Below are positions 31,474 through 59,100 of a DNA stretch of 64,000 nucleotides, in pieces. The notes below the pieces were generated by a model, which was not told the DNA's origin, did no database searches, and saw only the letters and a list, made by a program, of their open reading frames with translations. Position numbers and translations under genes: made by a program. This stretch comes from Sipunculus nudus (taxonomy: Eukaryota; Annelida; Sipuncula; Golfingiida; Sipunculidae): NCBI GenBank assembly GCA_026874595.1, contig CM049322.1, positions 43,214,840-43,278,839 on the forward strand, in the 5' to 3' direction. Every line of letters begins with the position of its first letter. Within the stretch, counting starts at the first letter, position 1.

Positions 31474-34400
31474 TATATAAACAAGAAACAGAGCTTTTAT
31501 TAAGAAATGATATACAAAGAGAAATGAAGCGTATCGTCAATACGTATCGGTATCGAATTAACTGTATCGCAATACGTATTGTACCGGATGAGGCGGACCG
31601 ATACCTAGCCCTATTCTGTGGTATTTAAAAAATGTTCCATTTCATATGCATTATATAACATAACGCATAAAACTTGATGTGGACAATGATATATTCAGTT
31701 TTGGACACAGCTAAAAGATTCCACCAGTATGGTCCAATGTACCATTTTAAACAACTATGGGGGCGAGTTTCATGTCTAAGGTTGTCCTGAGGTAGAACTT
31801 TATGTATCAGGACATGTCCTTTTTTTAAATATGGATACGTAGATTTATTAATTTATTTCATGGTATAAAAATAATTATCATAACTATTCTAAAGGACCAG
31901 ATTTTGCTTGTCTCCTTTCCTATATTTACTCATAAGTAACTAAATAATAAATGTTACTTATATTTGATTGCATTTAACAGAATAAATAACGAAACTATAT
32001 ATTTTGTTACGAAGAAACATTGCTCAGGGAAAAACACTGGGCCGATCCGGAAGTCGAACCCATGTCCATGGCGCACAAGTCCGGCGAACTAACCGCTTCG
32101 CTAACAAATCAAGCTTCACTAGCGAGATAGTTCAGTCCGCTTTTATGTCACCCCGTAACACACCCCCTCTTAAGAGCGTTCTGCTATCATCATGGGACCA
32201 ATTATCTCAGGAGTCAAACTTTGGTGAGCTTATTCCCTTGGCCACAAAGTTTACCGTCACGTTGGACGAGCCCCCATTTTGTTACGAAGACAAATTAATC
32301 AGGGGAAAACATTGGGCCGATCCCATATTCCAACCCATGTTGGTGGCGCACAAGTCCGGCGAACCAACCGCTTCGCTAGCAAAGTAAGCTTCACTAGCGA
32401 GACAGTTCAGTCCGCTTTTATGTCATCCCGTAACATCATAAATATTCATATAGGCAAGAACCCTGATAAAACGTTTATGTTTTAATGCAGATGGTCAAAC
32501 AGCAGATAATATCGTGTATGAGTGGAAGAATTTGCCGGAAGTCGTCCAGGTGCCCGACAGACTGACACTTCCGGAATATGAGTTCATGGGGTACCAACTG
32601 AAGGATTGTACCAAGAGATATGTCACAGGTAAGCGAAGGTCAGGGGAACCAATTAATATACATTCTTTATTATTTACAAGTTTACTCGAGAACAAATGAT
32701 GAATTTTAGTTTATTACTTAGGTTTTTAAGAAAATATATAATATAGCAGTATCATTTTTAAGCGTCACCATCGAAGATAAAGAACATATGGATCATTAAA
32801 GGGTGGACTAAACAAAATTTATTGCATGAGAAGGCTGTCATCAAAGTTTTGTAGGGCGATAAAATGAAATATATTGGAAAAAAACGTTTACTTGATTGTT
32901 ATTTTCCTTAGAAATTATCAGTCGAGACTCCCCAGGAATACCTGCTGCCGCATGTAAGGCAGGAGTCTTTTCCTACCAATGCCGACAGTTCATGATTAAT
33001 GAGAAAAAAATGCTGTACTGCAGAGTTGATTATTTTCATTAAATTAAATTTGTATTAGCTTGGCTTTTTCAATGTTCTCGTGGTTTGTATCGGTACATTC
33101 TGGTTAAATGCCGTCTTGGAATCGACCTCAGTTGGCTATAGACTTTGAATGATACTCTAGTTCATCTCCGCAAAAGTGTGAGCATAAACATGATACAATC
33201 TGGGCCAAGTCTGAGGCCAGACTATACTATCCAACTCAGGCTAAAGTTTAACTGAGGTTGGATTAGAATTAGGTTTTCACTGAAGTTGGTTTCTGCTTTA
33301 AAGTAGCCAGGGTTAAGGTTTGGGCAGGATATGGAGTGAGGCTTATAAGCTGAGATTTATTTTAATATATTGATCATATAAATTGTTACAATAAATGAAA
33401 CGCGGCACTTTTTTTGTGAATCTCATAGTGCCGTTGTTAGTATCTAAAGATTTATTTATTTATTTATTTACATTATGTTTATACAGGGAAAACCAATCAG
33501 TTTAAATTAAACTGGTCTTACTTGGTGCCCTGTATCAGTACATATAAAACATACAATGACTAAACTATCAATACAATGCATAAAATAATACCATGACTAA
33601 AAATATAAACATGAACATATGGACTCAAATCATAAAAGCATATTAAGAGAGTTAAGAAAGTATATCAATATATACATCTATAGACAGAAGGAGTAAACTA
33701 AAATATCACATTAAATCAGTATATATATACATGCAAATATGCGAGGCGTACGAACCAATAATATTACAATAATCTCTAGCATTTGTGGACCTGATCATTG
33801 TTAGATTCAGTTAAATACGTATGAAATTAATTTACAGTTGTTGTATGATCTATGAAATGATAAAAGAATGAGTGCTACATGTATAAAACGCAAATTTATG
33901 CAAATATAACATGTGTCATATAGAACATACAGTTGCTAAAATTTCCAATTTGATTCGTTTCTTAAAAGATGCACAAGTTATGGCTGACTTAGATTCATTG
34001 GATAAACTATTCCATACTTTTGGCCCCATATATAGTAAAGATGGACGAAACCGGAGGACCCTGAAAAACTGCTACAATCTACTCTGATCGTCAATTTTCA
34101 AATCGAAACCAGGCCGCCTTAGGGTTGCAACAGGCTGTATCTTTGCCTTTTTTGTCTGCCTTATCTTGTACCATTCCATATCACGACTTCTCTGGTATTT
34201 CAGGTGATTTTAGCTGTAAGTACGTGAGTCTGCTTATGAAGAGGAACATCGGTTACTACGTTATCAGAGTGTTTATACCGAGCGCCCTGATCGTCATGCT
34301 GTCCTGGGTGTCCTACTGGATAGACTACAGGTCCGTCCCCGCCCGGGTCTCTCTCAGTCTCCTTACGGTTCTCACAATCACCACACAGGCGACCAGTGTC

Positions 34401-37400
34401 AACGCCAGGCTGCCCGCCGTGTCCTACATAAAGGCAATTGACGTGTGGATGTCCGTCTGCCTTGTTTTCGTGTTTGGTGGATTGATTGAATATTCCATCG
34501 TAAATGTCATGGCTCGGAGCTCAAAGGATAAGGCAGCAGAGAAGAAGGTAAGATATTGTAAACTAGATCGGTGTGAGTGTGTGTGTGTAGTCGTGCGACT
34601 ACCTGGATTGCGCGGCTGGCTCTTAATCAAGCTTTCTTGTGCTTTACACAATGTCATGCTTCAGAACAATGGTTCACATTATCACTAGCTTAACTCATAT
34701 TAACATGTATACCTATAAATGGGGCGTTCTCCTCGTTGACATTGGAACCTTCTTTTGTCACAAGTTTACATGATCCTTTAATTAAAAATAAATCCATGTG
34801 TTCAAGATTAGACCACAATAAATTTAATGGATTGTTCCTTGGCTGTTAAAATAAATACCTCGGTCCCACGGACACTCGCGACAACTGGCCAAGTACTCGC
34901 GATAGAAAATTATGCAGAGACCTCTCTAATGAGGTGCAAGCATTGAAATTTGGTTGCAAAGTTTTGTCGAACGATAATAGCGGCAAAATATCAGCGAACC
35001 TCACAGAAGCTTCGGAAATTAATACCTATTACATGATCTGTTGAATTAAAATATATCCATTTATTATCCCTGATACATCTGTGATTTTTCGGCAAAGATT
35101 GGATATGCATCTGTAACAGTCCTGGAATGTCAGAAATGCCGACAAGCCATCTGAGAACATTCAGCAAGCATCACTGATGCATAGGCAATCATTTGCCGAA
35201 CTATTCCCCGAACACAGCAAGAGGCCAAAGCCTCAGTGAGACTGAGGTCATGTGCCTCCGTATAAATTACATAAATATCCATTTTAAATCTGTTTGCGCA
35301 ACGTTCCTTATAGGCAAACCTACCAACCAATGAACTAAGAGAAAACATAAAGTCTTGACAGAGATATAAGCAATTTGAGATTTATACTAATCTTATTCCG
35401 AGTATACCCAGGCATATATGTGCACAACATGTGAAATGAACCATCGTCCCTGTATTTTAAATGAATCTCGTGTAAGCTTGTGATGACATTCTCCCTGACA
35501 TGCTTTAAATTCGGTTGATAACAAAATAAAAGTGACATGTCAAGCGTGCTGCCCGCTATCGTACAAGTGATGAGCAAATTAACTGACTCAGTACAGTTAC
35601 TAAATGCTATTTAACTATGGCCAAAGACGGGGAAATTCTGATTTTCAGATACTCTGTTTGCTAATACGAATATTATTCAACTTCACGACATGCAACTGGA
35701 AATCGACAGGATGTTGTTAATATAAATACTAATAGTACTCAAACTCAGGCGTATAATATATTAAATATGAATCTTATTTATATGTTTTGTGACCATGCCC
35801 ATCATGACTCTTTAACTTATAAAAATTATCGTAAAGTACACCCTTTGCTCCTTTACTTTAAAAATGCATCTTCTAAACAAGTGTGAGCATTACGAGTAGT
35901 GGCCGTCTGACTTGTATGGGGCGCATGAAAAAAAAACTAAGATTAAAGGTGTCCATTCACCTGCCTTTTGAAACGAATTGATTTGATTTCTGTCCTTCTA
36001 TGCACATGTGAAGATACATGTATTGATAATCTAAGGCTAAATCCGCTTATGTTCCAGAAGTTCTTATATATGACGCCTCTGTGAAGGATGTATGAACTTG
36101 CTTATCAACAACATGTTTGAAAACACAGCTCTGTTGACAAAAAGGGAAACATGTAACCTACGCCATTTTCCAAACGCAAAGTGTATGAACGCAAAGTGTA
36201 GCAGTCTCTGTACTATTGCCCCTACGGTAGGCTGGTAGGGTTTTATTAGGTTATTGTCTTCGAGATGCTTATTAAGCCTGGCTGCAACAACCTTCTCTAA
36301 GAGCTTGGACACGTATGACTTTCCGCCAGATACCCTTGTTGAATTTGTTTTGATTCTTTTGACGGGACCCCACATATTATAAACACATTGATAAAAACAT
36401 AACTAGCAGCCTGTGTGCGGTGTTATCCACGTTTTCTGGCATATTTTTATAACAGCTCCAAGGGATTACCTATAGTTTAGAAAGATCAGATAGGTTTTAG
36501 ACCCCCTTTAAACAGTGAATTCAGATACGATGCTTTGAGAAGGAAGGCTTATTCTCAGTGATGAGTTTATTTTCATAACAATATCTGGGTCACTATGAGT
36601 TTTGTGGGTTGTTCGGTTTTCTTAGCTGTCCCCATCGTAGCTGTCACCATCGATGCTTTTTGTTATTCTTCAGTCTGTATTTAAGCTAGATCTCCAAAAC
36701 GTTAATTTTCAAAAACTGACTTTTGATGGATGTAATAGTCATTTGTGATTTGCACCTGATATATACTTTTGATCTTGACCTAATTCCCCAAGTCATACGC
36801 CATATAGCCTGTTTCTTATTATCGCTCAGTCCTGCCTGTGTTTACTCTGACTCTCCAGCCGGGGCGTTTTTTAATTTATTCAGATTATTTAGTAGATTTG
36901 CACTGCTGTTGATTATTTGTAAACTTGGCCTGAGTTTAATGGCCTCTTGCCCGTTACTGCATCCATGCTCACTTGCGGGTAACGGGGCAAGGGGATCAGG
37001 GAGAAGGCTTCCCCGGTGATCGCTCGACGATTGCGGGTATCTAAGTTTTGTTATACATTTATATTCGGCAAAGGCCTATTTTAGGCCTTGTATGATTATC
37101 CTTTACTTATCGACTGGACATTAACACCCAGTGTCAGTCGATGAAAAAAATAAGTCAATAATTCAATAGAAAATGTCTGCTTAAAATAGAGAATTTTTAT
37201 TTCAGGAGTTGCAAATTCTGGGCACCATAACACAATGACCATTAGGACACCTGTATTCGTTACCATGACGACACGTCGATTAACGTAAAATCATTTCCCA
37301 ATTTTCTCACCTTTCGGACGTTTTTCTACGGGATAACTCATATTTTGTTTTCATGTATAAAGTATTACTCATGGTATTATGTTTTAACAACAAAAGCAGG

Positions 37401-37774
37401 AGACAATATCAAATTAGGCAAGCATATCTTATGTTAATTGGTTTGTCTACAGACCGATTAACGTTATCTACACTAAAACAAATCTAAATGTCCTGATTTT
37501 AGACTCGAGTACTCATTTATAAGTACTGGGTTCTCGAGTACACGAGCACTATTTTTGACACTAGAATTAAAATTATCGTGTTTCTTTATTTGCACAGAAA
37601 GACGATCCCACCGACGTGGAAGCAAATGTGAAATGCTGTAGCGCCACCTGGTCGCCGTCCAAAAAATCAGAGAAGACCCATCTGATTGACCGCTGGTCAC
37701 GTGTTGCTTTTCCCCTGATGTTTTTCATTTTCAATATATTTTACTGGTCAGCATATTACATAATTATTTTGTAG
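23445..37774 (+). CDS. Cys-loop ligand-gated anion channel subunit (glycine/glutamate/GABA-gated chloride channel type)
   Basis: Eight exons chain in phase to 413 codons: 23445-23479, 24287-24462, 25026-25093, 26952-27172, 27936-28018, 32491-32628, 34204-34547 and 37598-37774. The product has a signal peptide (about 1-20), an extracellular ligand domain with FFRQTW (100-105), the Cys loop C174-C188 with FP.D, and a second cysteine pair C234-C245 (DCTKRYVTGDFSC) typical of glycine and glutamate-gated chloride channels. M1 lies at about 257-281, M2 at 286-308 opening with PAR, M3 at 316-340 and M4 at 391-411. PAR before M2 is the usual anion-selectivity motif. Five subunits form a plasma-membrane channel; the ligand cannot be told from sequence. 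The M3-M4 loop is short, about 50 residues. Exon sizes 68/221/83/138 equal those of vertebrate GABA-A receptor genes. Confidence 0.92.
23763..23837. repeat. (TA)n microsatellite within the receptor gene's first intron
   Basis: TA tract followed by further imperfect TA, ATGT and GT stretches to about 23945. Confidence 0.95.
24287..24462 (+). CDS. Receptor gene exon 2
   Basis: The acceptor is TTTGCATTTAG with a strong pyrimidine tract and the donor is GTAACA in phase 1. It encodes the end of the leader, a Ser/Thr-rich stretch and the start of the ligand domain. Confidence 0.8.
25026..25093 (+). CDS. Receptor gene exon 3
   Basis: A 68-bp exon between a TATAG acceptor and a GTGAGC donor encoding VSTTVYIDFLLAHLSVYSEA plus two residues, the first beta strands of the ligand domain. 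Confidence 0.9.
26952..27172 (+). CDS. Receptor gene exon 4
   Basis: A 221-bp exon (CCAG acceptor, GTAAGA donor, phase 2) containing the FFRQTW and LWVPDTFLVNE ligand-site strands and DPDGTIVYS. Confidence 0.93.
27936..28018 (+). CDS. Receptor gene exon 5 (Cys loop)
   Basis: An 83-bp exon (TTTCAG acceptor, GTAAGT donor) encoding the Cys loop CEFLLQKFPHDNQTC, with an N-glycosylation sequon NQT inside it. Confidence 0.93.
28041..28229. repeat. (TA)n, then (AAT)n/(ATT)n inverted repeat in intron 5
   Basis: TA tract 28041-28087, then an AAT run that switches to ATT at about 28180, each about 45 bp and mutually complementary. Confidence 0.95.
28974..30311. mobile_element. TA-flanked inverted-repeat element nested in the hAT element
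   Basis: Ends TAGTGAAACC and (complement) CAGTGAAACC, each next to TA, suggest a Tc1/mariner-type non-autonomous element. Both subterminal regions carry GGGGCGGAYACCCCGC blocks. No transposase is present. Confidence 0.55.
29081..29242. mobile_element. 162-bp MITE with TTA target duplication
   Basis: Roughly 30-bp inverted ends start AGGCCCGGCCACACCGAAC on the left and AGGCCTGGCCACACCGAAC on the right. TTA flanks both sides (29078-29080, 29243-29245). A 3-bp TTA duplication suggests PIF/Harbinger. Confidence 0.75.
30380..30765 (+). pseudogene. LINE fragment, end of the reverse transcriptase ORF
   Basis: The plus strand reads KKAIRIITNSKYNAHTKPIF, KSLKILKINDIFRLNILKFY, and after stops further blocks including CLRNIIPKVINETD and THSLQG. 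These are C-terminal blocks of jockey/CR1-like non-LTR retrotransposon ORF2. In-frame stops show it is dead. It lies inside the hAT element. Confidence 0.7.
31427..31480. repeat. (TA)n microsatellite
   Basis: TA tract near the right end of the hAT element. Confidence 0.9.
32005..32160 (-). repeat. TRIM 3' LTR
   Basis: A 156-bp terminal repeat. It has the better-preserved polymerase III-like boxes. Confidence 0.8.
32280..32435 (-). repeat. TRIM 5' LTR
   Basis: A 156-bp terminal repeat, roughly 85-90% like its partner. The B-box is altered to GGTTGGAA. Confidence 0.8.
32491..32628 (+). CDS. Receptor gene exon 6
   Basis: A 138-bp exon (ATGCAG acceptor, GTAAGC donor) encoding SYGQTADNIVYEW, ligand-site loop B, and the first cysteine of the loop C pair. 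Confidence 0.93.
33440..34060 (-). pseudogene. LINE 3' end with (TAAA)n tail
   Basis: The minus strand encodes GPKVWNSLSNESKSAITCAS and FKKRIKLEIL before a stop. This resembles the usual end of CR1/jockey-like ORF2 (GPK.WN.LP, SFK..LK). An AT-rich 3' region then ends in TAAA repeats at 33470-33441, a typical LINE tail. It lies in receptor intron 6. Confidence 0.65.
34204..34547 (+). CDS. Receptor gene exon 7 (M1-M3)
   Basis: A 344-bp exon (TTTCAG acceptor, GTAAGA donor, phase 0) holding the second loop C cysteine, M1, the M2 pore helix starting PARVSLSLLTVLTITTQ, and M3. Vertebrate homologues usually split this region with a further intron. Confidence 0.93.
36220..36345 (-). pseudogene. LINE reverse transcriptase fragment
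   Basis: The minus strand reads SKLLEKVVAARLNKHLEDNN followed by LIKPYQ. This is the conserved 'SK.LEK....L..hL..n.l....Q' block of non-LTR RT. It is an isolated fragment in receptor intron 7. Confidence 0.65.
37598..37774 (+). CDS. Receptor gene exon 8 (loop, M4, stop)
   Basis: Follows a GCACAG acceptor. It encodes a short basic and acidic loop with a CC pair, then DRWSRVAFPLMFFIFNIFYW (M4), ending at TAG 37772-37774. Confidence 0.9.
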   Translation, partial: KDDPTDVEANVKCCSATWSPSKKSEKTHLIDRWSRVAFPLMFFIFNIFYWSAYYIIIL

Positions 37775-41454: not shown

Positions 41455-41880
41455 AATTGAATATGATATTTTGTGTTGAATGCGGTTAAAACTACATAAT
41501 TTGTCATGTGCGAGATGGTAGCGCTCTGTAGTCCCAAGATGCTTAAAGTATGTAAGAACACTTCCCGTTGTATAAGAGCAGGGTAGCGCTCGGTAAAAAG
41601 TCCCCAGCGCTCGGTAGCCCCATTTGGTTCAGAGCAATTACGGGTGTGACCCCAGGGGTAGCGCTCGGTAAAAAGTCCGAGCGCTCGGTAGTCCACGCTG
41701 GTCAAAGTGATGCCTGGTGTGAATCCAGGGGTAGCGCTCGGTAAAAAGTCCGAGCGCTCGGTAGTCCACGCTGGTCAAAGTGATGCCTGGTGTGAATCCA
41801 GGGAAGCGCTCGGTAAAAAGTCCTACCGAGCGCTAGCGCTCGGTACGCTCGGTAGCGCTCGGTAAAAAGACCGACCCGTC
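41455..41880 (-). mobile_element. TACCGAGCGCT element, right arm of inverted pair
   Basis: Reverse-complement copy of the 40.5-kb element, longer because an internal unit of about 105 bp is tandemly repeated. That unit contains GGATTCACACCAGGCATCAC, CAGCGTGGACTACCGAGCGC and ACTTTTTACCGAGCGCT. The 22-bp palindrome recurs at 41824-41845. Confidence 0.7.
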
Positions 41881-47816: not shown

Positions 47817-49061
47817 TCACCATATGTAAACGCCCAGGTAGCTTTGTAAGTGGGCTGATTTTACACCGAATCTCGGCATACCCACACCTTTTTTGACCTT
47901 TTGCCAATCTCCTTCTATTGAATTCGTGTGACATCCTGTCACCGGGTCTTTAAAATTCTGACTGTGGTTCACAGTCTCATGCTGGTAGCCATGATCAGTC
48001 AAACAATCGTACAACTTCCAGCAATCAGAGCGTATGATTGAGCCGGCTTTAATGTATTTCTTTAAAAGTGGCAGCAGGGTCTCCGTAGATCTGTCAGGGA
48101 CGACAAACATAAACACTTTACTTTTATCCCTCTGTTCCCTCCCTCCAAAAACCCAATCACCCTTCACCATATGACCTCTGTGGTATTTTCGTTTTGAAAA
48201 TTTTGATTCGTCTATTTCAACGATCACCCCTTCTCCCCCGATTTGTGCATCATCCGTCTGGGAGAGGATGCTGTGTTCACATACCTCTCTGCAAAAGTTA
48301 CACCAGTCAACACAAGTATTGCTGCTCACTTTCAGTTCCCCCATCATCTGACATTGTGTCATGCCTATCGACCACATATGTGTTAGCTTCATTATTTCTT
48401 CTATGGTGAGATTGGCAAAACTAAACCAACTGCCATGTCTGATAGACAGACGCACATCGTGTTTTTTTGGTTGCTTTTTCTGACAACGCCATTTGAATGT
48501 ATCACTGGTAGTGCTTTCGGCGGTAGTCACAAGTGACATAGCTTGTCCACATTGATAACACGTTCTGCTATCCTTAATCAATTCAACCTCCATCAGCCAA
48601 TTGATTGTGCTCTCTTTTGATATTAGTATCTGCTGCACTAATGTTTCCCACGTCATATTGTCTAAAGGTGGCAGATTCTTCCACTGATAGCTGCCTTTGC
48701 TAATATGGTACTGTGTTGCAGTATGTTTGAAAGTTTTTTTTTCACCCACCAATGTACACTGTGTTGCTGCATCAGTAATATTACACCGTTTCTGTTCATT
48801 GCTACCTACTGGTGCCACCAACCTGGGCTTATGATGAACTCTGGGCAGTCGTGCACTGGTTTTCTGCCGTCCCCTCATGGAACCTTCAGAACTTTCAATT
48901 TCTGATTCCTTCACTCTTTTGGTGAATCCCGTGTCATCATGACCACTTTTTCTTTTTCTGCCACACGTTTGTGAGCCTCTCAGGGTCACACCTGTCTTTT
49001 CTATGATGATACTATCTAGTTTTTTTCCGAAATCTAGGTATAATCGGGGATTCGAAGTCAC
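47817..49061 (-). CDS. Merlin/ISXO2-type DDE transposase
   Basis: A single uninterrupted frame of 414 codons. The N-terminal third is basic and low in conservation, with a CGRKRKSG nuclear-localisation-like patch (33-40). A partial zinc ribbon follows (C168, C171, C193; the usual fourth cysteine is not obvious). The catalytic domain spans about 280-412: D284 in VIVEIDESKFSKRKYHRGH, D346 in GSIIRSDCWKLYDCL, and E383 in HTNSIEGDWQKVKK, with FGGREQRDKSKVFMFVVPDR between. This matches the ISXO2-like DDE domain of Merlin DNA transposons, which cut and paste using short inverted repeats. All three acidic residues are intact and there is no frameshift, so it is either a recent copy or a domesticated gene. 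Clear terminal repeats were not found. Confidence 0.85.
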   Translation of the reverse strand: MTSNPRLYLDFGKKLDSIIIEKTGVTLRGSQTCGRKRKSGHDDTGFTKRVKESEIESSEGSMRGRQKTSARLPRVHHKPRLVAPVGSNEQKRCNITDAATQCTLVGEKKTFKHTATQYHISKGSYQWKNLPPLDNMTWETLVQQILISKESTINWLMEVELIKDSRTCYQCGQAMSLVTTAESTTSDTFKWRCQKKQPKKHDVRLSIRHGSWFSFANLTIEEIMKLTHMWSIGMTQCQMMGELKVSSNTCVDWCNFCREVCEHSILSQTDDAQIGGEGVIVEIDESKFSKRKYHRGHMVKGDWVFGGREQRDKSKVFMFVVPDRSTETLLPLLKKYIKAGSIIRSDCWKLYDCLTDHGYQHETVNHSQNFKDPVTGCHTNSIEGDWQKVKKGVGMPRFGVKSAHLQSYLGVYIW

Positions 49062-49239
49062 TGTCGGACGACATCATGTCTGCTGTTAACGTCAACAGAT
49101 TAACTGCCTTGGCAATATTGACCGTTATTTATTACATAACTAACTATTACATAACGATGGAATGTGCAATGCGAGTGACCAAGTGTACTGAACGACCTTT
49201 CACGTAAATACAACCCCCGAACATTAGCCGGCATGAATG

Positions 49240-49310: not shown

Positions 49311-49904
49311 TGGTATCTTTATTTCTTTGCATGTTTGTAATAATCATTGAATTTCTCTTTCAGATTCCTTCAGAGATGCGGACATTACATCCTAAGTGTT
49401 ACACCGGCAGCAGATGAAATAGATCAGATAAGGGATGACGGAGTTAAGGGATGAGGGAGATGGATAGGCAAGAACAACAAGACAGATGAAGTGACAATAT
49501 TTTAATTTTTATAATTTTTTTATCCCCCCAAAAATTCGACACCCCATTTTTTACTCTATCCCCATCAAATATATCGCCCTCTTTAGCTTGTGTACTATTC
49601 CTATATCCATATTTTTGGGTTCATTGGTAGGCACTAATTCTATAGTCACTCCATGATAATTATAATATACATATAATATATTTCGATCAAACAACTCGGA
49701 AGCGGATCCAGGGGAGGGGTCCCCCCCCTTTTCATCAGAAACAACGTTTTTAGCTCAGCTGACTATAAGTCATCTGAGCTATAGTCGTGGTCCATTGTCC
49801 GTCGTCCCTCCATCTGTCTGTCCGTCTGTCCGTCTGGATGTCCGTCCGTAAGACTGGCACGTTTCGACACCGTTGGACCTACAAATCTGAAATTGGGCAT
49901 ACAG

Positions 49905-51365
49905 TTAGATGTCCCTTAAATCTCCTACCATGCCGAAAATTGGGTCAATAGGACTTTGTTTCTTCTAGATATTAAGGAAAAACCTCAATTTTTTATTAGA
50001 AATCTATTTTCACACTTCAGGACTGCCTTATATCAAAACCACTCATCTGGTTTTCTTCATATTCACCATAAATATTCCTCTATATAGTTTCTATGTACAT
50101 GCCAGATATTAAGTCAGTATTATATAATTTAAAAAAAGTATAGGCCCAAACATAATGGACTTTGTAAAAAAAATCAGGAAGATATTTGGTACTTAAGACC
50201 AAAAGTGTTAAAGGTAGGGACTTTTTTCCATTAATACAACTTTAATTAATCGAAATTAAATTGTATACCAAAAATTAGATCAAAATCTGGTAAATTTTTT
50301 TAAATATTGGCAAAAATATAAAATTGGTACCTTAAATTTTGCCCAACTTTGGCCACGGCACGTTTTTTTCCTGTAACTACTGTGGATTTAATTTTCACAG
50401 CATGTATACATAAGGATTTAATCTGTTAAAATCTGAAATTTAAAAATAAAAGCTGCAAAATTAGGCTAGTTATTGAATTTTTTTGGAGGCTCTTGTTATA
50501 ATAATATAATATAATATAAACTTTTTTATTTTACATGGATTGTACAAATAGTTATTATAACTAATCGAGGCACTCTCCATGGCTCAGGTGATGGCGTTCG
50601 GTAGTCTGCAAAGATGGAGGAAACCGGAGAAAACCACCGGCCTTGGACGGGCAACTGCAACCCACTCTCATTGCCACGCCGGGGATCGAACCCGGGTCGC
50701 TAGTGGAGAGAGCCAAGAGTTTTACCACTCAGCTGTCCAGGCCCCTGTTGTATTCCCTTACATTGTCAAGCAGTCCACTTTGATGACTGTAGGTCATTCA
50801 GTGCACATCTCTATGCTCCCCAGGCTGTTGGCATAATTTTAGATGTCCCCAAAATCTCCTACCATACCAAAAATTTGGTCATTAGGACTTTTTTCCTTCG
50901 AGATATTAAGGAAAAAAAACTCCGTTTTCCATAAAAAAAAGCCATTGTTACACTTCAAGGCTGCCTAATATCAAAACCACTGATCTGTTTTTGATTGTAT
51001 TTAGTATTCACTTTCTTTGATACATTTTCTACGATCTTACCAAAAATTAGGTCAGTGTTGGGTATTATTTTGAAGTTATGGGGCAAAACATAATGCAATT
51101 TTTAAAAAAATCAGGAAATATATTTACTCGTGTAACATGAGAATTGCTGAACCTAGAGACTTTTTTTCAGGAATATAACTTTATTTAATTAAGATTCAAG
51201 TGTTTACCCAAAATTAAATCTGAATTTTGCAAATTTTTCAAGTTATTAGCATAAATAAAAAATCAATACCTTAAATTTTTGTCCAACTTTGGCGCTGTTG
51301 ATTTAATTTTCACAGCATATATACATAAGGATTTAATCTTTTAAAATCTGAAATTTCAAAGAAAT
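49905..51365. repeat. Diverged direct duplication, two copies of about 530 bp
   Basis: 49907-50446 and 50840-51360 share AGATGTCCC..AAATCTCCTACC at the start and CATAAGGATTTAATCT near the end, about 930 bp apart, with a SINE in the spacer. Confidence 0.7.
50578..50748 (-). mobile_element. tRNA-derived SINE
   Basis: The minus strand has an A-box-like segment in CAGCTGAGTGGTAAAACTC and a perfect B-box GGTTCGATCCCC about 40 bp downstream, then a body ending in GGTTTCCTCCATC. It sits between the two duplicated blocks. Confidence 0.6.
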
Positions 51366-51399
51366 TGATTGGAAAGAATAGCTTTTATTCATGTTTTCA

Positions 51400-53200
51400 T
51401 ACACCATGTCAAGTGTTGTTTACATCTAGCCCACCTAGTAGTACAGCCTTCACTTGCATTATGTAACCCACACCAGGCAGCTTGCCTTGGGTCAGCTTGG
51501 CCACTACCAGCAGGCTTCCCCTCTGCCCTGCCCCCCCCCCCCCCCAGCAGGTGCATAAACTAGATGAATGTTATTACTTTCTGTATTTGATTCATTCTTA
51601 TTCTAGGCTATGCTACATTTTAGATTTTGTATTTTACCACCAGGGTTACAGTGATTGAAGTGTACATTTAATTGTGTCCACAAAGTAGTGTATTGCTATG
51701 AAAGTGTGGATGTTCATGAGTTAAGTAATTCTTTACTTCAGAGGAGTAAAAACTTCACCAGGTGTGAAATTGAGTATTAATTCCAGTAATAAATTAAAAC
51801 TGGGATAGTAATTAGCACAATGATATTGTTTGTCCCTCAATCAACCAACAGTGTGTTTACCTTATTTGAAAAGATGTTTTATTTTATCAAATTTACTGAA
51901 TCTTTTTTTTTATTTTGGTGAATAAAATTAAGCATGTACTGAAAACTCCAGTGTGCAAAACTTTTTAATAGTGATTCAAGGAATATTCTTTTAGATGCCA
52001 TGTTGTGGCAATATTTTCTTTTAAATATAGTTTAAACATTTATGATTTAAAAATAATAAAATATATGTGTATGCATAATATGACCCAATATGAGCTACAC
52101 TCTGGATATATGATGATTGCAACTTTTGCAACAATTCTAATATTTTAACTTATAGTTTCAGTTTTTTACTCTGTATATATAATGATTGCAACTTTTGCAA
52201 GAATTATAATATTTTAACTTATATTTTCAGGGTTTTTTATTAAAAATTTATAAAACCTGTAAATAAAGGAATTATTCAGATATAAACTTCTTAATGGAAA
52301 AAGTGGATATGCTTAAAAAAAATAGGATTATATATAAACTTAAATGCATTATTCCCTTGAAAGTGAAATAAAGGTGTTAGTCCATTCTGTCAACTTGCCT
52401 CTCCATCTGTAAATTTTCATATGCATCACAGTATCTCAAAACTTTTACTGTTTTTCTTCATGACAGTCTTGTCAGAGTATTACTTGCAATCATATATTTA
52501 GAACTTTACTGTAACCAAGTAGGAGGGCCCCTTTCCTCTTAGCTTTTCATATTCTTATATAAATGAAAAACATTACAATAGAATATTTCTACATCCACCT
52601 TTGTGCTGCCCTCACTTTTCCCTTCTCCGAACCCCATCCCAAAGTCAGCCTCAGTAAGCAAGAACAAGATGAATCAGATATATTCATACTTTAATATTTT
52701 GTATAACTATTCGTCGATAGGTACCTATGTACATGCCAGAAATTATGTCAGTATTGTGTAATTTGTAGACATAGTGGGCATCACAATAATGTACCTTGTC
52801 AAGACTAAAGAGATATTGTGTCATACAGTCACAAATTCATGAATCACTTCATCAGCATAGTTAATCATAACATCATATCTGTCAAATTGAAAGCTTGCAG
52901 ACTACCATACACTTAAGATCCTTCAACAAATAGCCTTATCATCATTCTACTACTGCTTATTACTGCTGTCATTGCATTCATATTTGCTCAAATATATCAC
53001 AATTTTCAACCCCTCCTAAATAAATAAAAAATAAACCACTATATTTGACTCTATTAATCCATCAGTCAGGTAATTTCATTTATCATTTACTCACATATTA
53101 CATTAAATTCCTTTATAATAGCCCAACATGTCCATGATATTCATAATGTTTATCGACTTGATATAGTATCACAGTGGAGAAACATTTACAGTCCAATCAT
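51400..53200. other. No gene recognised
   Basis: AT-rich sequence inside the inverted-repeat bracketed region. A 50-bp segment around TATATGATGATTGCAACTTTTGCAA is locally duplicated near 52110 and 52170. Confidence 0.4.
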
Positions 53201-53519
53201 GATCAGCTGAGCACCGTGACCCATGGGTCCCTTGTTTAAGGGCTTCAAACAACATTTTGCCGCCTGGACCCCCCTTTTTCAGACATGAGGACCTTTTTTT
53301 AGGGTTTTTATTTGTCCTCCTGGGTTGGACCCCCCTTTCCTAAATCCTGGATCCGCCCCTGAACGTGAATCTATGCCGGAACGTCATTAAATCATTGGCA
53401 CTGTCACCGGTAGTACTGCGGTAGGCGGCTCTACATTTCTGCCTGATACCTGATGCGGAGTGATGCCTTTTTCACTTTTGTCTCAACTTTCATTCCTTCA
53501 CTTCAGTCTCAAGACTAAT

Positions 53520-54567: not shown

Positions 54568-54641
54568 TTTGTGAAAGCTGTATGGAGGAATACCTTGGTG
54601 AATGTCCAGATCATCCTCTAATTATCATCAAGGATGCAGAG
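54568..54641 (+). CDS. PRDM9-like exon, zinc knuckle
   Basis: A 74-bp exon with a TTTTTAG acceptor and a GTGTGG donor in phase 0, encoding the C-C-C-H knuckle that precedes the PR/SET domain in PRDM9. Confidence 0.85.
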
Positions 54642-55832
54642 GTGTGGCAATCTGCATACTAAATTTACCAAGTTATCTACCATGGCTCTAAAGTAGTAAC
54701 CAAAATGTAAATCTGAAGTGTGTATATACTAGATATCTTTAGATATTCAATGAAATAGTGTCTGTTATATATTCTATGTAAAAATAAGTATGAAGTATTT
54801 GATATTTTACCAAACGTTTTATTCTGAATATAATTAAAAATAAATGTTTACTTTATCACTATAGATTAACTGTATCTATGGATATATGTAATTTTATTTT
54901 AGGAATTATTCTGTTTTATCATGTCTATTGAACTGGCATCACATTTAAATATGTACAATGATCAATAATTGGAATAATCAAATAATATAATGTTAATGAG
55001 CTCCTGGGATATTACTTTTCTCAGGCAAATGATAAAATGAAGAACTTTGACCTGGCAACTTTACCAGAGGGACTGGTTGTGAAAGACTCTAGAATTATTG
55101 GTGCTGGACTTGGAGTTTGGGCTGAGAAGGAATTTCCCAAGAATGTAAGATTTGGTCCTTACTTGGGTGAACTGATGACAGACGAAAACAAGGCTCATGA
55201 TTCTGGATACTGCTGGCAGGTGAGCTTTTCTTGGTGAATGTTTTAATGATGACACCAGCAAGTCATTATCATATATATAAATACACTGAATCTGTGCTTT
55301 CATTAAAACTGGACGCAGGTATTACTATCTGTAAATTATTTTACAATTATTTAATATTTTTTTTTATTATTTAATACAAGATATTAAAGAAAAATGAAAT
55401 GAAAGAAGCAGGAGTAGTAGTAGTAGCTTTAGATGGGTAGAAGCCTTTCAGTTTCCTATTTACTTAAAAAAGTCAAAACGGTTGTTTTATTTGTTCAATA
55501 TTTGTCCTTCTGATATAAATCATAACATTTATACCTGGAAAGTTCATACTTTGCCATCCAGACAACCCCTGCCACAACCCATTGGTTATTAGTTTGAAAC
55601 CTGTGCTTCACACATGGTCACACACACACATACATGCCAGTCACCCACAATTATTATCTCCGCCAAGCGGTGGGGATAATGTTTTTACCGGCCTCAATTT
55701 GTCTGTTTGTTCGTCTGTCTGTTGGCAACATTACTCAAAATGATCTTGACAGATTTTAATGAAATTTTCAGATACTGGGCAATGTTACAAGGAACAATTC
55801 AATTTTTGGGATGCAGATCATCTTGATTCAGG

Positions 55833-55928
<96 letters not shown>

Positions 55929-58426
55929 TTGTAAATTATATGCTGCTACCTGGCATAAGATAAGTAAACAAGGCAGCTCATTGCCCCCATAAAATGAGCT
56001 GCCTTGTTTACTGATATCCCGACAGGTAGCAGCACATGTATCCTGAGTGTGGTTGCTTTAAAATATAAATGCTGCACTTCTGACATGCATATGAGATCAA
56101 TGAGCTGCCTTGGCGGAGATCTGTACTCTTGATTGCAAGTTTCAGACTGTTTCAAAATACTATAGAGAACAGCTTTAAAATACGGGGGACATGATTTCCA
56201 GGAATTTGCTTGTTTTACTTTAGGTTTGTGATAACCGGAAGGTCAAACACCTTGTTGATGCACAAAACCCTGTAATGTCTAACTGGATGAGGTATGTAAA
56301 CTGTGCCCGCAATGAGCAGGAACAGAATCTGGTAGCCTTCCAGTACTGTGGACAGATCTACTACAGAAGCTTTAAGGAGATCCCTGCAGGCTCTGAACTC
56401 CTGGTCTGGTATGGAGATGTCTACGCCAAGGAGCTGGGTATCCACAGAGAGACGATCAGAGGAAAGATTGTTGGTGGCACAGGTAGGGATACTGTTGGTC
56501 ACACACACATATAGATGGTGGCACAGGTAGGGATACTGTTGGTCACACACACATATAGATAGTGGCATGGTCACACACACACACACACCTATTTACACCC
56601 CACTGAATCACAGTGATCTGAATAAAAAAAAAATTAATGTAATCTCAGGAAGACTCCATCCTATTCAGATCAAATCAACTTCAAAGCAAAATATATGATA
56701 AGAATATATGTTAACATATACGAACATTGTTAGGAGCTATTTTTACTATGCATTCATTTTTTTTATTCATTTATTTAAAAATGGCAGTATCAGCCGATCA
56801 TTGGATTTTTCTGTAATGGTTCAAATAATAATATTTTGAGAAAGATACAAATGCAGTTGAGAAACACTTGCCTTTTGTTATATTACCGAAGAGCACGTGT
56901 TCCACAGGATGAGGAAACCCTCAGATTAGAGTTTGTTCCAGTTCCTTCAGGAGCAAATCAATATTTTTTTTCTGAAAGCATGATGTCATTTTTCATAAAT
57001 CAGAGTTGTTAGTGTAACGTAACTATGCATTTTTATCTGAATAATATACAGTTACATGTGATAAAGAACTTTAGGGGTGGATTTTATTATTGCACATGAT
57101 GTATGGATCTGTTGAATTTCAAAGTTAATTTAAAATTGCTCTTATAAATATTTTGCTTGTTGTGCATAACTCATTAAATGTTCAATGGTATAGTTATTTA
57201 TTAGAAAATATTACATGCAAGCATGTTAATGTATAGCTCAAGGTATTATATAAAATTCTACTAAATTTGTATTTTGAATCCCTAATCAATGAATAAAAAA
57301 ATGATTTTAATATTTGTCTTATTTAGGAACCTTCAAATGTTCAGACTGTCATGGCCTGTATGGGAGTGAAGATTACTTGTGGAGACACAGACACAAGATG
57401 CATGGAGGCGTCCTACCTATACATATTATACAGAAACGTCATGAAGACGCCAAGAAAAGACAACAAATGTTAACACAGTCACAGAACACTGAGGTAAATA
57501 CAGGTCAATGTGGTAAGAGAAAGTCTAGTGGAAATGTACTGGAGGAATTAAATGTACAGGAGGATGAGAGAAAGCATGTGTGTAAATATTGTGGTCACAG
57601 GTCTAAAACGTTATCAGATCTACAGAAACATGAGAGGATTCACACCGGAGAGAAACCCTTTGAGTGTGGTGACTGCGGGAAAGGATTTAGGTATTCCTGT
57701 GACCTACACAGACACCAGAGAACTCACACAGGAGAGAAACCCTTTGTGTGTGATGACTGCGGGAAAGGATTTAGTCAAATAAACGACCTACACAAACACC
57801 AGAGAACTCACACAGGAGAGAAACCCTTTGTGTGTGATGACTGCGGGAAAGGATTTAATCAAATAAGCGACCTACACAGACACCAGAGAACTCACACAGG
57901 AGAGAAACCCTTTGTGTGTGATGACTGTGGTAAAAGGTTTAGTGCTTCAAGTGGACTCCGCCATCACCAGAAAACTCACACAGGAGAGAAACCCTTTGTG
58001 TGTGATGACTGTGGGAAAGGATTTAGGTATTCCTATGACTTACACAGACACCAGAGAACTCACACAGGAGAGAAACCCTTTGTGTGTGATGACTGTGGGA
58101 AAGGATTTAATCAAAAAGCCCACCTACACACACACCAGAGAACTCACACAGGAGAGAAACCCTTTGTGTGTGATGACTGTGGGAAAGGATTTAATCGAAT
58201 AGCCAACCTACACAGACACCAGAGAACTCACACAGGAGAGAAACCCTTTGCATGTGATGGCTGTGGGAAAGGATTTAATCAAAAAGCCAGCCTACACACA
58301 CACCAGAGAACTCACACAGGAGAGAAACCCTTTGTGTGTGATGACTGTGGGAAAGGATTTAAACTTCCTCACCACCTACACAGACACCAGAGAACTCACA
58401 CAGTAAAAGAAACCCTTTGTGTGTGA
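54568..58426 (+). CDS. PRDM9-like: PRDM9-like PR/SET-domain zinc-finger histone methyltransferase (5' part missing)
   Basis: Four visible exons chain in phase to 541 codons. Order: zinc knuckle [15 protein letters not shown] (C-x2-C-x7-C-x2-H), PR/SET domain, isolated C2H2 finger [20 protein letters not shown], charged linker, then ten tandem C2H2 fingers. The SET region has [40 protein letters not shown] and [11 protein letters not shown], very close to vertebrate PRDM9/PRDM7. The tyrosines at GYCW, IYYR and VWYG match those important for catalysis in PRDM9. In mammals PRDM9 trimethylates H3K4/K36 at sites bound by its fingers and so places meiotic crossovers; the same role here is inference. 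The visible first exon starts in phase 1, so N-terminal exons (SSXRD, possibly KRAB) are upstream and not recognised. A frameshift ends the array early. PRDM11 is a less likely match because it lacks such an array. Confidence 0.9.
55025..55219 (+). CDS. PRDM9-like exon, first half of PR/SET domain
   Basis: A 195-bp exon (TCTCAG acceptor, GTGAGC donor, phases 0/0) encoding [20 protein letters not shown] through DSGYCWQ. Confidence 0.92.
55656..56120. mobile_element. 465-bp inverted-repeat element with internal long hairpin, in a PRDM9-like intron
   Basis: The ends ATCTCCGCCAAG (55656-55667) and CTTGGCGGAGAT (56109-56120) are exact complements. Inside are a (TA)n tract and a hairpin with arms 55942-55982 and 55993-56033 (about 41 bp each, a few mismatches) around a 10-bp loop. 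The first part resembles a widespread animal repeat starting CTCCGCCAAG. No target duplication was found. Confidence 0.65.
55838..55921. repeat. (TA)n microsatellite
   Basis: A tract of about 84 bp, one of the longest TA tracts in the window. Confidence 0.95.
56224..56482 (+). CDS. PRDM9-like exon, second half of PR/SET domain
   Basis: A 259-bp exon (TTTAG acceptor, ACAG|GTAGGG donor, phase 1) with [21 protein letters not shown] and [15 protein letters not shown]. Confidence 0.93.
56473..56560 (+). repeat. 44-bp tandem duplication spanning a splice donor
   Basis: The segment starting GGTGGCACAGGTAGGGATAC occurs at 56473 and again at 56517, so the ACAG|GTAGGG donor is present twice (56483 and 56527). 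Use of the second copy would read into an in-frame TAG. Confidence 0.85.
57327..58426 (+). CDS. PRDM9-like terminal exon, proximal finger and C2H2 array
   Basis: A TTATTTAG acceptor joins in phase. It encodes the proximal finger, a roughly 60-residue linker, one divergent finger ([19 protein letters not shown]) and nine near-identical fingers joined by TGEKPF linkers. It stops at TGA 58424-58426 because of a +1 insertion at about 58402 in the last linker. Confidence 0.93.
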
Positions 58427-59085
58427 TGACTGTGGGAAAGGATTTAGGTATTCCTGTGACCTACACAGACACCAGAGAACTCGCACAGGAGAGATACCCT
58501 TTGTGTGTAATGACTGTGGTAAAAGGTTTAGTGATTAAAGTGGACTCCGCCATCACCAGAAAACTCACACAGGAGAGAAACCCTTTGTGTGTGATGACTG
58601 TGGGAAAGGATTTAGGTATTCCTGTGACTTACACAGACACCAGAGAACTCACACAGGAGAGAAACCCTTTGTGTGTGATGACTGTGGGAAAGGATTTAAA
58701 CTTCCTCACCACCTACACACACACCAGAGAACTCACACAGGAGAGAAACCCTTTGTGTGTGATGACTGTGGGAAAGGATTTCATCAAATAGCCAGCCTAC
58801 ACAGACACCAGAGAACTCACACAGGAGAGAAACCCTTTGTGTGTGATGACTGTGGGAAAGGATTTAAACTTCCTCACCACCTACACAGACACCAGAGAAC
58901 TCACACAGTAAAAGAAACCCTTTGTGTGTGATGACTGTGGGAAAGGATTTAGGTATTCCTGTGACCTACACAGACACCAGAGAACTCGCACAGGAGAGAA
59001 ACCCTTTGTGTGTGATGACTGTGGTAAAAGGTTTAGTGATTCAAGTGGAATCTGCCATCACCAGAACTCATACAAAAGACAGATC
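57576..59085 (+). repeat. 84-bp zinc-finger minisatellite, 18 units
   Basis: Units begin with the TTT of the linker at 57659, 57743, 57827, 57911, 57995, 58079, 58163, 58247 and 58331. After a +1 shift they begin at 58416, 58500, 58584, 58668, 58752 and 58836, and after a second +1 shift at 58921 and 59005. One divergent finger precedes them. The backbone is nearly identical; differences cluster in the helix codons. Confidence 0.95.
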
Positions 59086-59100
59086 ATTCAAACCGCATAA
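58427..59100 (+). pseudogene. Out-of-frame downstream part of the PRDM9-like finger array
   Basis: Eight more finger units follow the stop codon. Units 1-2 are shifted and unit 2 carries a TAA (58536-58538) where the related last unit has TCA. Units 3-6 form a clean open run. A second identical +1 shift at about 58907 precedes the last two units. The final finger is degenerate (GICHHQN). Not translated with the PR/SET domain unless spliced differently. Confidence 0.8.

What the first reader, a model, noticed from the sequence alone, without database searches (positions are those of the whole stretch)
54568..58426. PRDM9-like gene with full knuckle-SET-proximal finger-array architecture in a probable invertebrate
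The sequence shows, in PRDM9 order, the zinc knuckle, a PR/SET domain keeping the three tyrosine positions (GYCW, IYYR, VWYG), an isolated finger and a long tandem array. In vertebrates this combination marks the factor that places meiotic recombination hotspots. If the host is a mollusc, this is a candidate for PRDM9-type hotspot control outside vertebrates. The hotspot role is inference.
Basis: partly seen in the sequence, partly recalled or inferred. Interest (0 to 1): 0.95.

Follow-up and report, generated by a model that had tools for sequence, protein, structure and literature searches.

The report
Partial PRDM9 duplicate beside complete one
The gene is a real relative of PRDM9, the protein that chooses where chromosomes recombine in mammals, but this copy lacks the front half; a complete copy sits about 84,000 bases away, and PRDM9 was already known in molluscs and other invertebrates.

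Summary
Window 54568-58426 (+) holds a clean four-exon gene piece: zinc knuckle, PR/SET with the three catalytic tyrosines, an isolated C-x2-C-x12-H-x4-H finger and ten in-frame tandem fingers. The SET matches PRDM9 far better than any other PRDM in the PDB (136 bits against 95 or less). Fingers 2-10 are nearly uniform except in the DNA-reading helix.

The interpretation needs correcting: this copy is not a full PRDM9. A second copy about 84 kb downstream has KRAB, SSXRD, knuckle, SET and a six-finger array, all open. Its 5' exons, used as probes, find nothing in the window, while knuckle, SET and finger exons match at 85-96% DNA identity. The window array is cut by a frameshift; its ancestral end lies out of frame at 59.1 kb. 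A third copy, also damaged, lies 2.5 Mb away. The window SET evolved under purifying selection.

PRDM9 in molluscs is already published (limpet, mussel, clam, oyster). New member of a known kind; expression and hotspot role untested.

The parts
54568..54641 (+). Zinc-knuckle exon (C-x2-C-x7-C-x2-H); internal exon that needs one base from an exon upstream
   Evidence: Splice borders and translation; 93% DNA identity to the knuckle exon of copy 2; aligns with human PRDM9 residues 202-230 of a recalled probe
55025..55219 (+). PR/SET exon 1, holds tyrosine motif GYCW
   Evidence: Splice borders; PRDM9 best match in PDB; 89% DNA identity to copy 2
56224..56482 (+). PR/SET exon 2, holds IYYR and VWYG
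   Evidence: Splice borders; PRDM9 best match in PDB; 96% DNA identity to copy 2
57327..58426 (+). Last exon: isolated finger, linker, array, stop after frameshift
   Evidence: Pfam zinc fingers
57332..57403 (+). Isolated (proximal) finger, C-x2-C-x12-H-x4-H
57575..58414 (+). Ten in-frame tandem fingers of 28 codons; ten different sets of contact residues; the linker after the tenth is changed and shifts the frame
   Evidence: tandem repeat of period 84 at 57633-59036
58416..59100 (+). Eight remnant finger units outside the reading frame of the gene, up to the ancestral stop at 59098-59100; the frameshift recurs after the unit at 58836
   Evidence: 3' end aligns with the end of copy 2

Best explanation
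The window gene is a partial duplicate of PRDM9. It kept knuckle, SET methyltransferase, isolated finger and a DNA-reading array, lacks the KRAB and SSXRD exons, and had its array shortened by a frameshift. The complete gene is copy 2, about 84 kb downstream on the same strand. Most likely mechanism: copy 2 does the PRDM9 work (reads DNA with its array, methylates histone H3 there, and uses KRAB/SSXRD to pass the signal on). The window copy, if translated, is a DNA-targeted methyltransferase without those parts and not a hotspot chooser by itself, comparable to partial PRDM9 genes of fish. Shown: gene structure, family, missing exons, complete neighbour, past purifying selection on SET. Inferred: enzyme activity, germline role, lack of hotspot activity.
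For: SET: PRDM9 136, 132, 131 bits, next PRDM14 95, PRDM1 90, PRDM12 82, PRDM11 80, while human PRDM9 and PRDM11 score 102 against each other. Knuckle and isolated-finger spacing. Copy 2 with KRAB, SSXRD, knuckle, SET, array in eight exons of consistent phase. Probes made from copy 2's KRAB1, KRAB2, middle and SSXRD exons: best window matches E 1.5, 2.7, 6.5 and 4.7, that is none, in a set of the window plus 210 kb of flank (DNA level); the same probes find three of the four exons in copy 3. Knuckle, SET and finger exons of the window match copy 2 at 93, 89, 96 and 85% DNA identity. Changes unique to the window copy in 145 SET codons: 10 silent, 4 replacement, with three codons that differ in all copies set aside; chance under neutrality 1.7e-4. 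Complete PRDM9 and fast arrays go together in vertebrates, and a swordtail with a partial gene recombines like a knockout (PMC5519329, abstract).
Against: In vertebrates partial PRDM9 genes tend to have slow arrays and all teleost PRDM9-beta have changed tyrosines (PMC5519329); the window copy has a diverse array and all three tyrosines, so it does not look like PRDM9-beta. The array contrast is helix against frame; contact against other helix positions is weak (8 of 70 choices). The linker region looks neutral (6 silent, 13 replacement). No transcript data.
Confidence: 0.6

Rival explanations
1. The window copy is a recently dead pseudogene: it served after duplication, then lost its 5' exons and its array end, and makes no protein now.
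For: No start exon, KRAB or SSXRD found; frameshift and stops in the array; neutral-looking linker; copy 3 is damaged too.
Against: No stop in 541 codons and all six splice borders between the four exons intact; SET changes unique to this copy are mainly silent, though these may predate the damage.
Confidence: 0.28
2. The window gene itself directs hotspots: it has 5' exons that I missed, or does without them, and its ten diverse fingers set the sites.
For: Three tyrosines kept; ten distinct contact sets against five among six fingers in copy 2.
Against: Same-genome KRAB, middle and SSXRD exons match nothing in the window or in 100 kb upstream; array frameshifted; a complete copy is at hand.
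Confidence: 0.08
3. It is another PRDM family member (PRDM11- or PRDM14-like) that resembles PRDM9.
For: In an unrooted tree of seven SET domains the window lies outside the vertebrate PRDM9+PRDM11 group and no branch reaches full support.
Against: That place is expected for an invertebrate relative from before the PRDM9/PRDM11 split; the nearest row is mouse PRDM9, 53% identity. PDB scores, knuckle and finger spacing and the KRAB-SSXRD copy beside it decide for PRDM9.
Confidence: 0.02

Closest known systems
PRDM9 of invertebrates: Lottia, Capitella, Nematostella (Oliver et al. 2009, PMC2779102), Mytilus KRAB (PMC8835667), Mulinia (PMC10451705, PMC9716669), Pacific oyster (PMC12111275)
   Same: PRDM9-type SET plus long homogenised finger array in one last exon; mussel PRDM9 carries the ancestral KRAB, as copy 2 does
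   Different: The window copy lacks KRAB and SSXRD and its array is frameshifted. Those papers concern other species; duplicate copies as here were not looked up in them
Human/mouse PRDM9
   Same: Knuckle, SET with Y276/Y341/Y357 equivalents, x4 isolated finger, array
   Different: No KRAB or SSXRD in the window copy; hotspot role untested
Teleost PRDM9-beta (PMC5519329)
   Same: Partial PRDM9 without KRAB and SSXRD, SET under constraint
   Different: All PRDM9-beta have a changed tyrosine; the window copy keeps all three and has a diverse array
PRDM7 of primates (PMC2082429)
   Same: Duplicate of PRDM9 with a rearranged or shortened array
   Different: PRDM7 is a separate, primate-only event; primate PRDM7 share a change at Y357 (PMC5519329), kept in the window copy
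PRDM11
   Same: SET paralogue of PRDM9
   Different: 80 bits against the window SET where PRDM9 has 131-136; no long finger array (recalled)

Membership tests
PRDM9 (complete) | SET closer to PRDM9 than to other PRDMs | tested here: met
   136 bits against 95 or less; small tree consistent but unresolved
PRDM9 (complete) | Three catalytic tyrosines | tested here: met
   GYCW, IYYR, VWYG, aligned with PRDM9
PRDM9 (complete) | Zinc knuckle before SET and isolated finger after it | tested here: met
   C-x2-C-x7-C-x2-H and C-x2-C-x12-H-x4-H
PRDM9 (complete) | KRAB domain | tested here: not met
   Not in window or 100 kb upstream with copy 2's exons as probes; present in copy 2
PRDM9 (complete) | SSXRD domain | tested here: not met
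   Same probes; present in copy 2
PRDM9 (complete) | Tandem array in one last exon, homogenised, variable at contacts | tested here: met
   94% DNA identity outside the helix, 70% of residue diversity inside it, 44% at four contact positions
PRDM9 (complete) | Array open to its natural end | tested here: not met
   Frameshift; eight remnant units; ancestral stop at 59098-59100 out of frame
PRDM9 (complete) | Expression in meiotic germ cells | not testable with these tools
   No RNA data; clam and oyster PRDM9 are testis-biased (PMC9716669, PMC12111275)
PRDM9 (complete) | H3K4/H3K36 methylation and hotspot placing | not testable with these tools
   Needs assay and ChIP
Partial PRDM9 (PRDM9-beta type) | SET and fingers without KRAB and SSXRD | tested here: met
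Partial PRDM9 (PRDM9-beta type) | Changed catalytic tyrosines, as in all teleost PRDM9-beta | tested here: not met
   All three kept; rule from PMC5519329

The most novel reading that the evidence does not exclude
The KRAB-less window copy is translated in the germline and works together with the complete copy: its SET and its more diverse ten-finger array join PRDM9 multimers, a two-gene system in which a partial paralogue adds to or competes for hotspot choice in an invertebrate.
Probability: 0.08. Interest if true: 0.65.

Novelty: new member of a known kind. Interest (0 to 1): 0.35.

Why it matters
It adds another genome, probably invertebrate, with a complete KRAB-SSXRD-SET-finger PRDM9 (copy 2) and shows that the gene duplicates and sheds domains there, as in fish and primates. 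None of my paper searches listed a study that shows PRDM9-set hotspots in an invertebrate; one complete and two damaged copies on one chromosome would make a usable test case if the species can be sampled.

Tried and rejected
Pfam scans of the upstream + strand (10 kb; 6001-54600 as 54 frame pieces) showed no KRAB or SSXRD. I give them no weight, because Pfam also finds no SSXRD in copy 2 and KRAB only at E 0.22. For the same reason the genome-wide negatives for PF09514 and PF01352 say nothing: they missed copy 2's exons as well. A human PRDM9 N-terminus as tblastn probe found no N-terminal domain in the window; the same probe finds copy 2's KRAB at E 1.7e-7 and 0.006 but SSXRD only at 1.2, so the same-genome probes carry the argument. 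A motif search for an SSXRD exon end found nothing convincing. One control frame was the wrong frame and found nothing; the right frame rang. The viral-contig scan found nothing. NCBIfam and PADLOC gave nothing of use. Introns of the two copies align little better than shuffled sequence, although silent divergence of the exons is only about 0.2; I could not tell an old duplication with exon conversion from fast intron turnover. The host species was not worked out. The census of PR domains (PF21549) and of zf-CW, for the partners ZCWPW1/2 (PF07496), did not complete.

Full report
What is there. Window 54568-58426 (+) holds four exons with standard splice borders: 54568-54641, 55025-55219, 56224-56482 and 57327-58426. 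Spliced, they read 541 residues without a stop: zinc knuckle, PR/SET domain, an isolated finger with four residues between its histidines, a linker, and ten tandem C2H2 fingers. The first of these exons begins inside a codon, so it is an internal exon. No first exon was identified.

Which family. Against all PDB chains the SET domain finds mouse and human PRDM9 first (136, 132, 131 bits; best E 8e-39), then PRDM14 (95), PRDM1 (90), PRDM12 (82) and PRDM11 (80). Human PRDM9 and PRDM11 score 102 bits. So the window SET is closer to PRDM9 than PRDM9 is to its own vertebrate paralogue. A small unrooted tree of seven SET domains puts the window next to PRDM9+PRDM11, but no branch has full support. 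The three tyrosines named for human PRDM9 (Y276, Y341, Y357; PMC5519329, section read) are present as GYCW, IYYR and VWYG.

The array. In fingers 2-10, DNA outside codons 11-18 is 94% identical on average; 70% of residue differences fall in codons 11-18 and 44% at the contact positions -1, 2, 3, 6. Of 20475 choices of four positions, 8 carry as much diversity; of the 70 choices inside codons 11-18, 8 do. So the contrast is helix against frame more than contact against helix. All ten fingers have different contact sets. The array does not end naturally. A changed linker shifts the frame and a stop follows at 58424-58426. Eight further units run to 59.1 kb. The same changed linker recurs 505 bases further on, one unit holds a stop and three have lost their last histidine. 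The end of these remnants aligns with the end of copy 2, stop and following sequence included. So the array once had about eighteen units. The same multi-base change in two places speaks against a sequencing slip.

The upstream search. Pfam, a recalled human probe and a motif search found no KRAB or SSXRD in the window. Pfam later proved too insensitive. I therefore fetched 10 kb just downstream and 100 kb on each side. tblastn showed a second PRDM9 about 84 kb downstream on the same strand. Its exons have standard borders and consistent phases: KRAB1 C17:43358135-43358303, KRAB2 43358723-43358866, a middle exon 43359395-43359477, SSXRD 43360973-43361108, knuckle 43361369-43361442, SET 43365061-43365255 and 43365820-43366078, finger exon 43366854-43367617. 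Its start exon was not identified either. Without recall: the PDB chain of mouse PRDM9 matches this junction at E 0.028 and the KRAB of ZNF93 at E 0.61, Pfam KRAB at E 0.22; these are weak. The array of copy 2 has six fingers, two of them with the same contacts, and ends at a stop without frameshift.

Missing exons. Probes from copy 2's own KRAB1, KRAB2, middle and SSXRD exons have their best window matches at E 1.5, 2.7, 6.5 and 4.7, and none below 0.25 elsewhere in the window plus 210 kb except copy 2 itself (DNA level). The knuckle, SET1, SET2 and finger exons of the window match copy 2 at 93, 89, 96 and 85% DNA identity. The same probes find KRAB1, middle and SSXRD exons in copy 3. So these exons are not near the window gene.

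Copies in the genome. A search of the whole genome with the window protein scored 136 of 1153 candidates and listed 65 matches. Three loci stand out at 65-99% identity, all on C17: the window, copy 2, and copy 3 at 45.81-45.83 Mb on the other strand; the next match has 54%. Copy 3 has KRAB1 with an in-frame stop and without the AG found before it in copy 2, no KRAB2 match below E 1 in 32.5 kb, middle exon, SSXRD, knuckle and SET, and an array that stops in frame in its tenth finger. Of the three copies, one has all the domains open.

Selection. Changes unique to the window copy in 145 SET codons are 10 silent and 4 replacement (about 100 silent and 334 replacement sites; three codons that differ in all copies set aside). 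So few replacements have a chance of 1.7e-4 under neutrality. In the 110 codons from the isolated finger to the first array finger the counts are 6 and 13, not different from neutral (P 0.18). So the SET was kept for much of this copy's separate history. Conversion between copies, and a time before the damage, may confound this.

Likely function. Copy 2 is the probable PRDM9 of this animal. The window copy, if translated, would be a DNA-targeted methyltransferase without the parts that PRDM9 uses to pass the signal on. In vertebrates, taxa with a complete PRDM9 are those with fast-changing arrays, and swordtails with a partial one recombine like knockouts (PMC5519329, abstract). Against a simple transfer of that rule: the window copy has a diverse array and intact tyrosines. 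A recently dead copy is the main rival.

What is known. Oliver et al. 2009 (PMC2779102; section read, passages) reported Prdm9 in Lottia gigantea with 23 fingers, concerted evolution and a male-gonad EST, and in Capitella and Nematostella. PMC8835667 (passages) describes an ancestral KRAB in Mytilus PRDM9. PMC10451705 (passages) lists a PRDM9 with ten fingers in the clam Mulinia, PMC9716669 (passages) testis-specific expression there, PMC12111275 (passages) high Prdm9 and Zcwpw2 in oyster male gonad. Duplicates with lost domains are known from primates (PRDM7; PMC2082429, passages) and fish (PMC5519329). My paper searches listed no study showing PRDM9-set hotspots in an invertebrate; they cover open-licence PMC papers only, one search listed 25 of 55, and most listed papers were not opened.

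Host. The assembly has 1.43 Gb in 153 contigs, C17 being 61 Mb. The host was not identified; a mollusc is plausible and untested.

Noticed in passing
C17:43358135-43367617 (L018-L019), outside the window: Complete PRDM9 (KRAB, SSXRD, knuckle, SET, six fingers) about 84 kb downstream of the window gene.
   Followed up: yes
C17:45811756-45831408, minus strand (L022-L025): Third PRDM9 copy: stop in the KRAB1 exon, no KRAB2 found, array ended by an in-frame stop.
   Followed up: partly
C16:48182320-48516429: Dense run of PR/SET-like matches (30-45% identity to the window SET), several with stops inside; looks like a local expansion of PR-domain genes or pseudogenes.
   Followed up: no
window 47820-49073 (-): Open 418-residue frame with an ISXO2/IS1595-like transposase domain, E 6.6e-20.
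   Followed up: no
window 34065-34685 and near 37700 (+): Exons of a neurotransmitter-gated ion channel (TM1-3 region by Pfam; a motif like the last transmembrane segment), upstream of the PRDM9 copy.
   Followed up: partly
window 49747-53236: About 3.5 kb that is 90-94% identical to sequence in the knuckle-SET intron of copy 2, interrupted at 50494-50745; probably a mobile element present at both places.
   Followed up: no
window 41581-41823: Tandem repeat of period 73, 3.3 copies, 89% matches.
   Followed up: no
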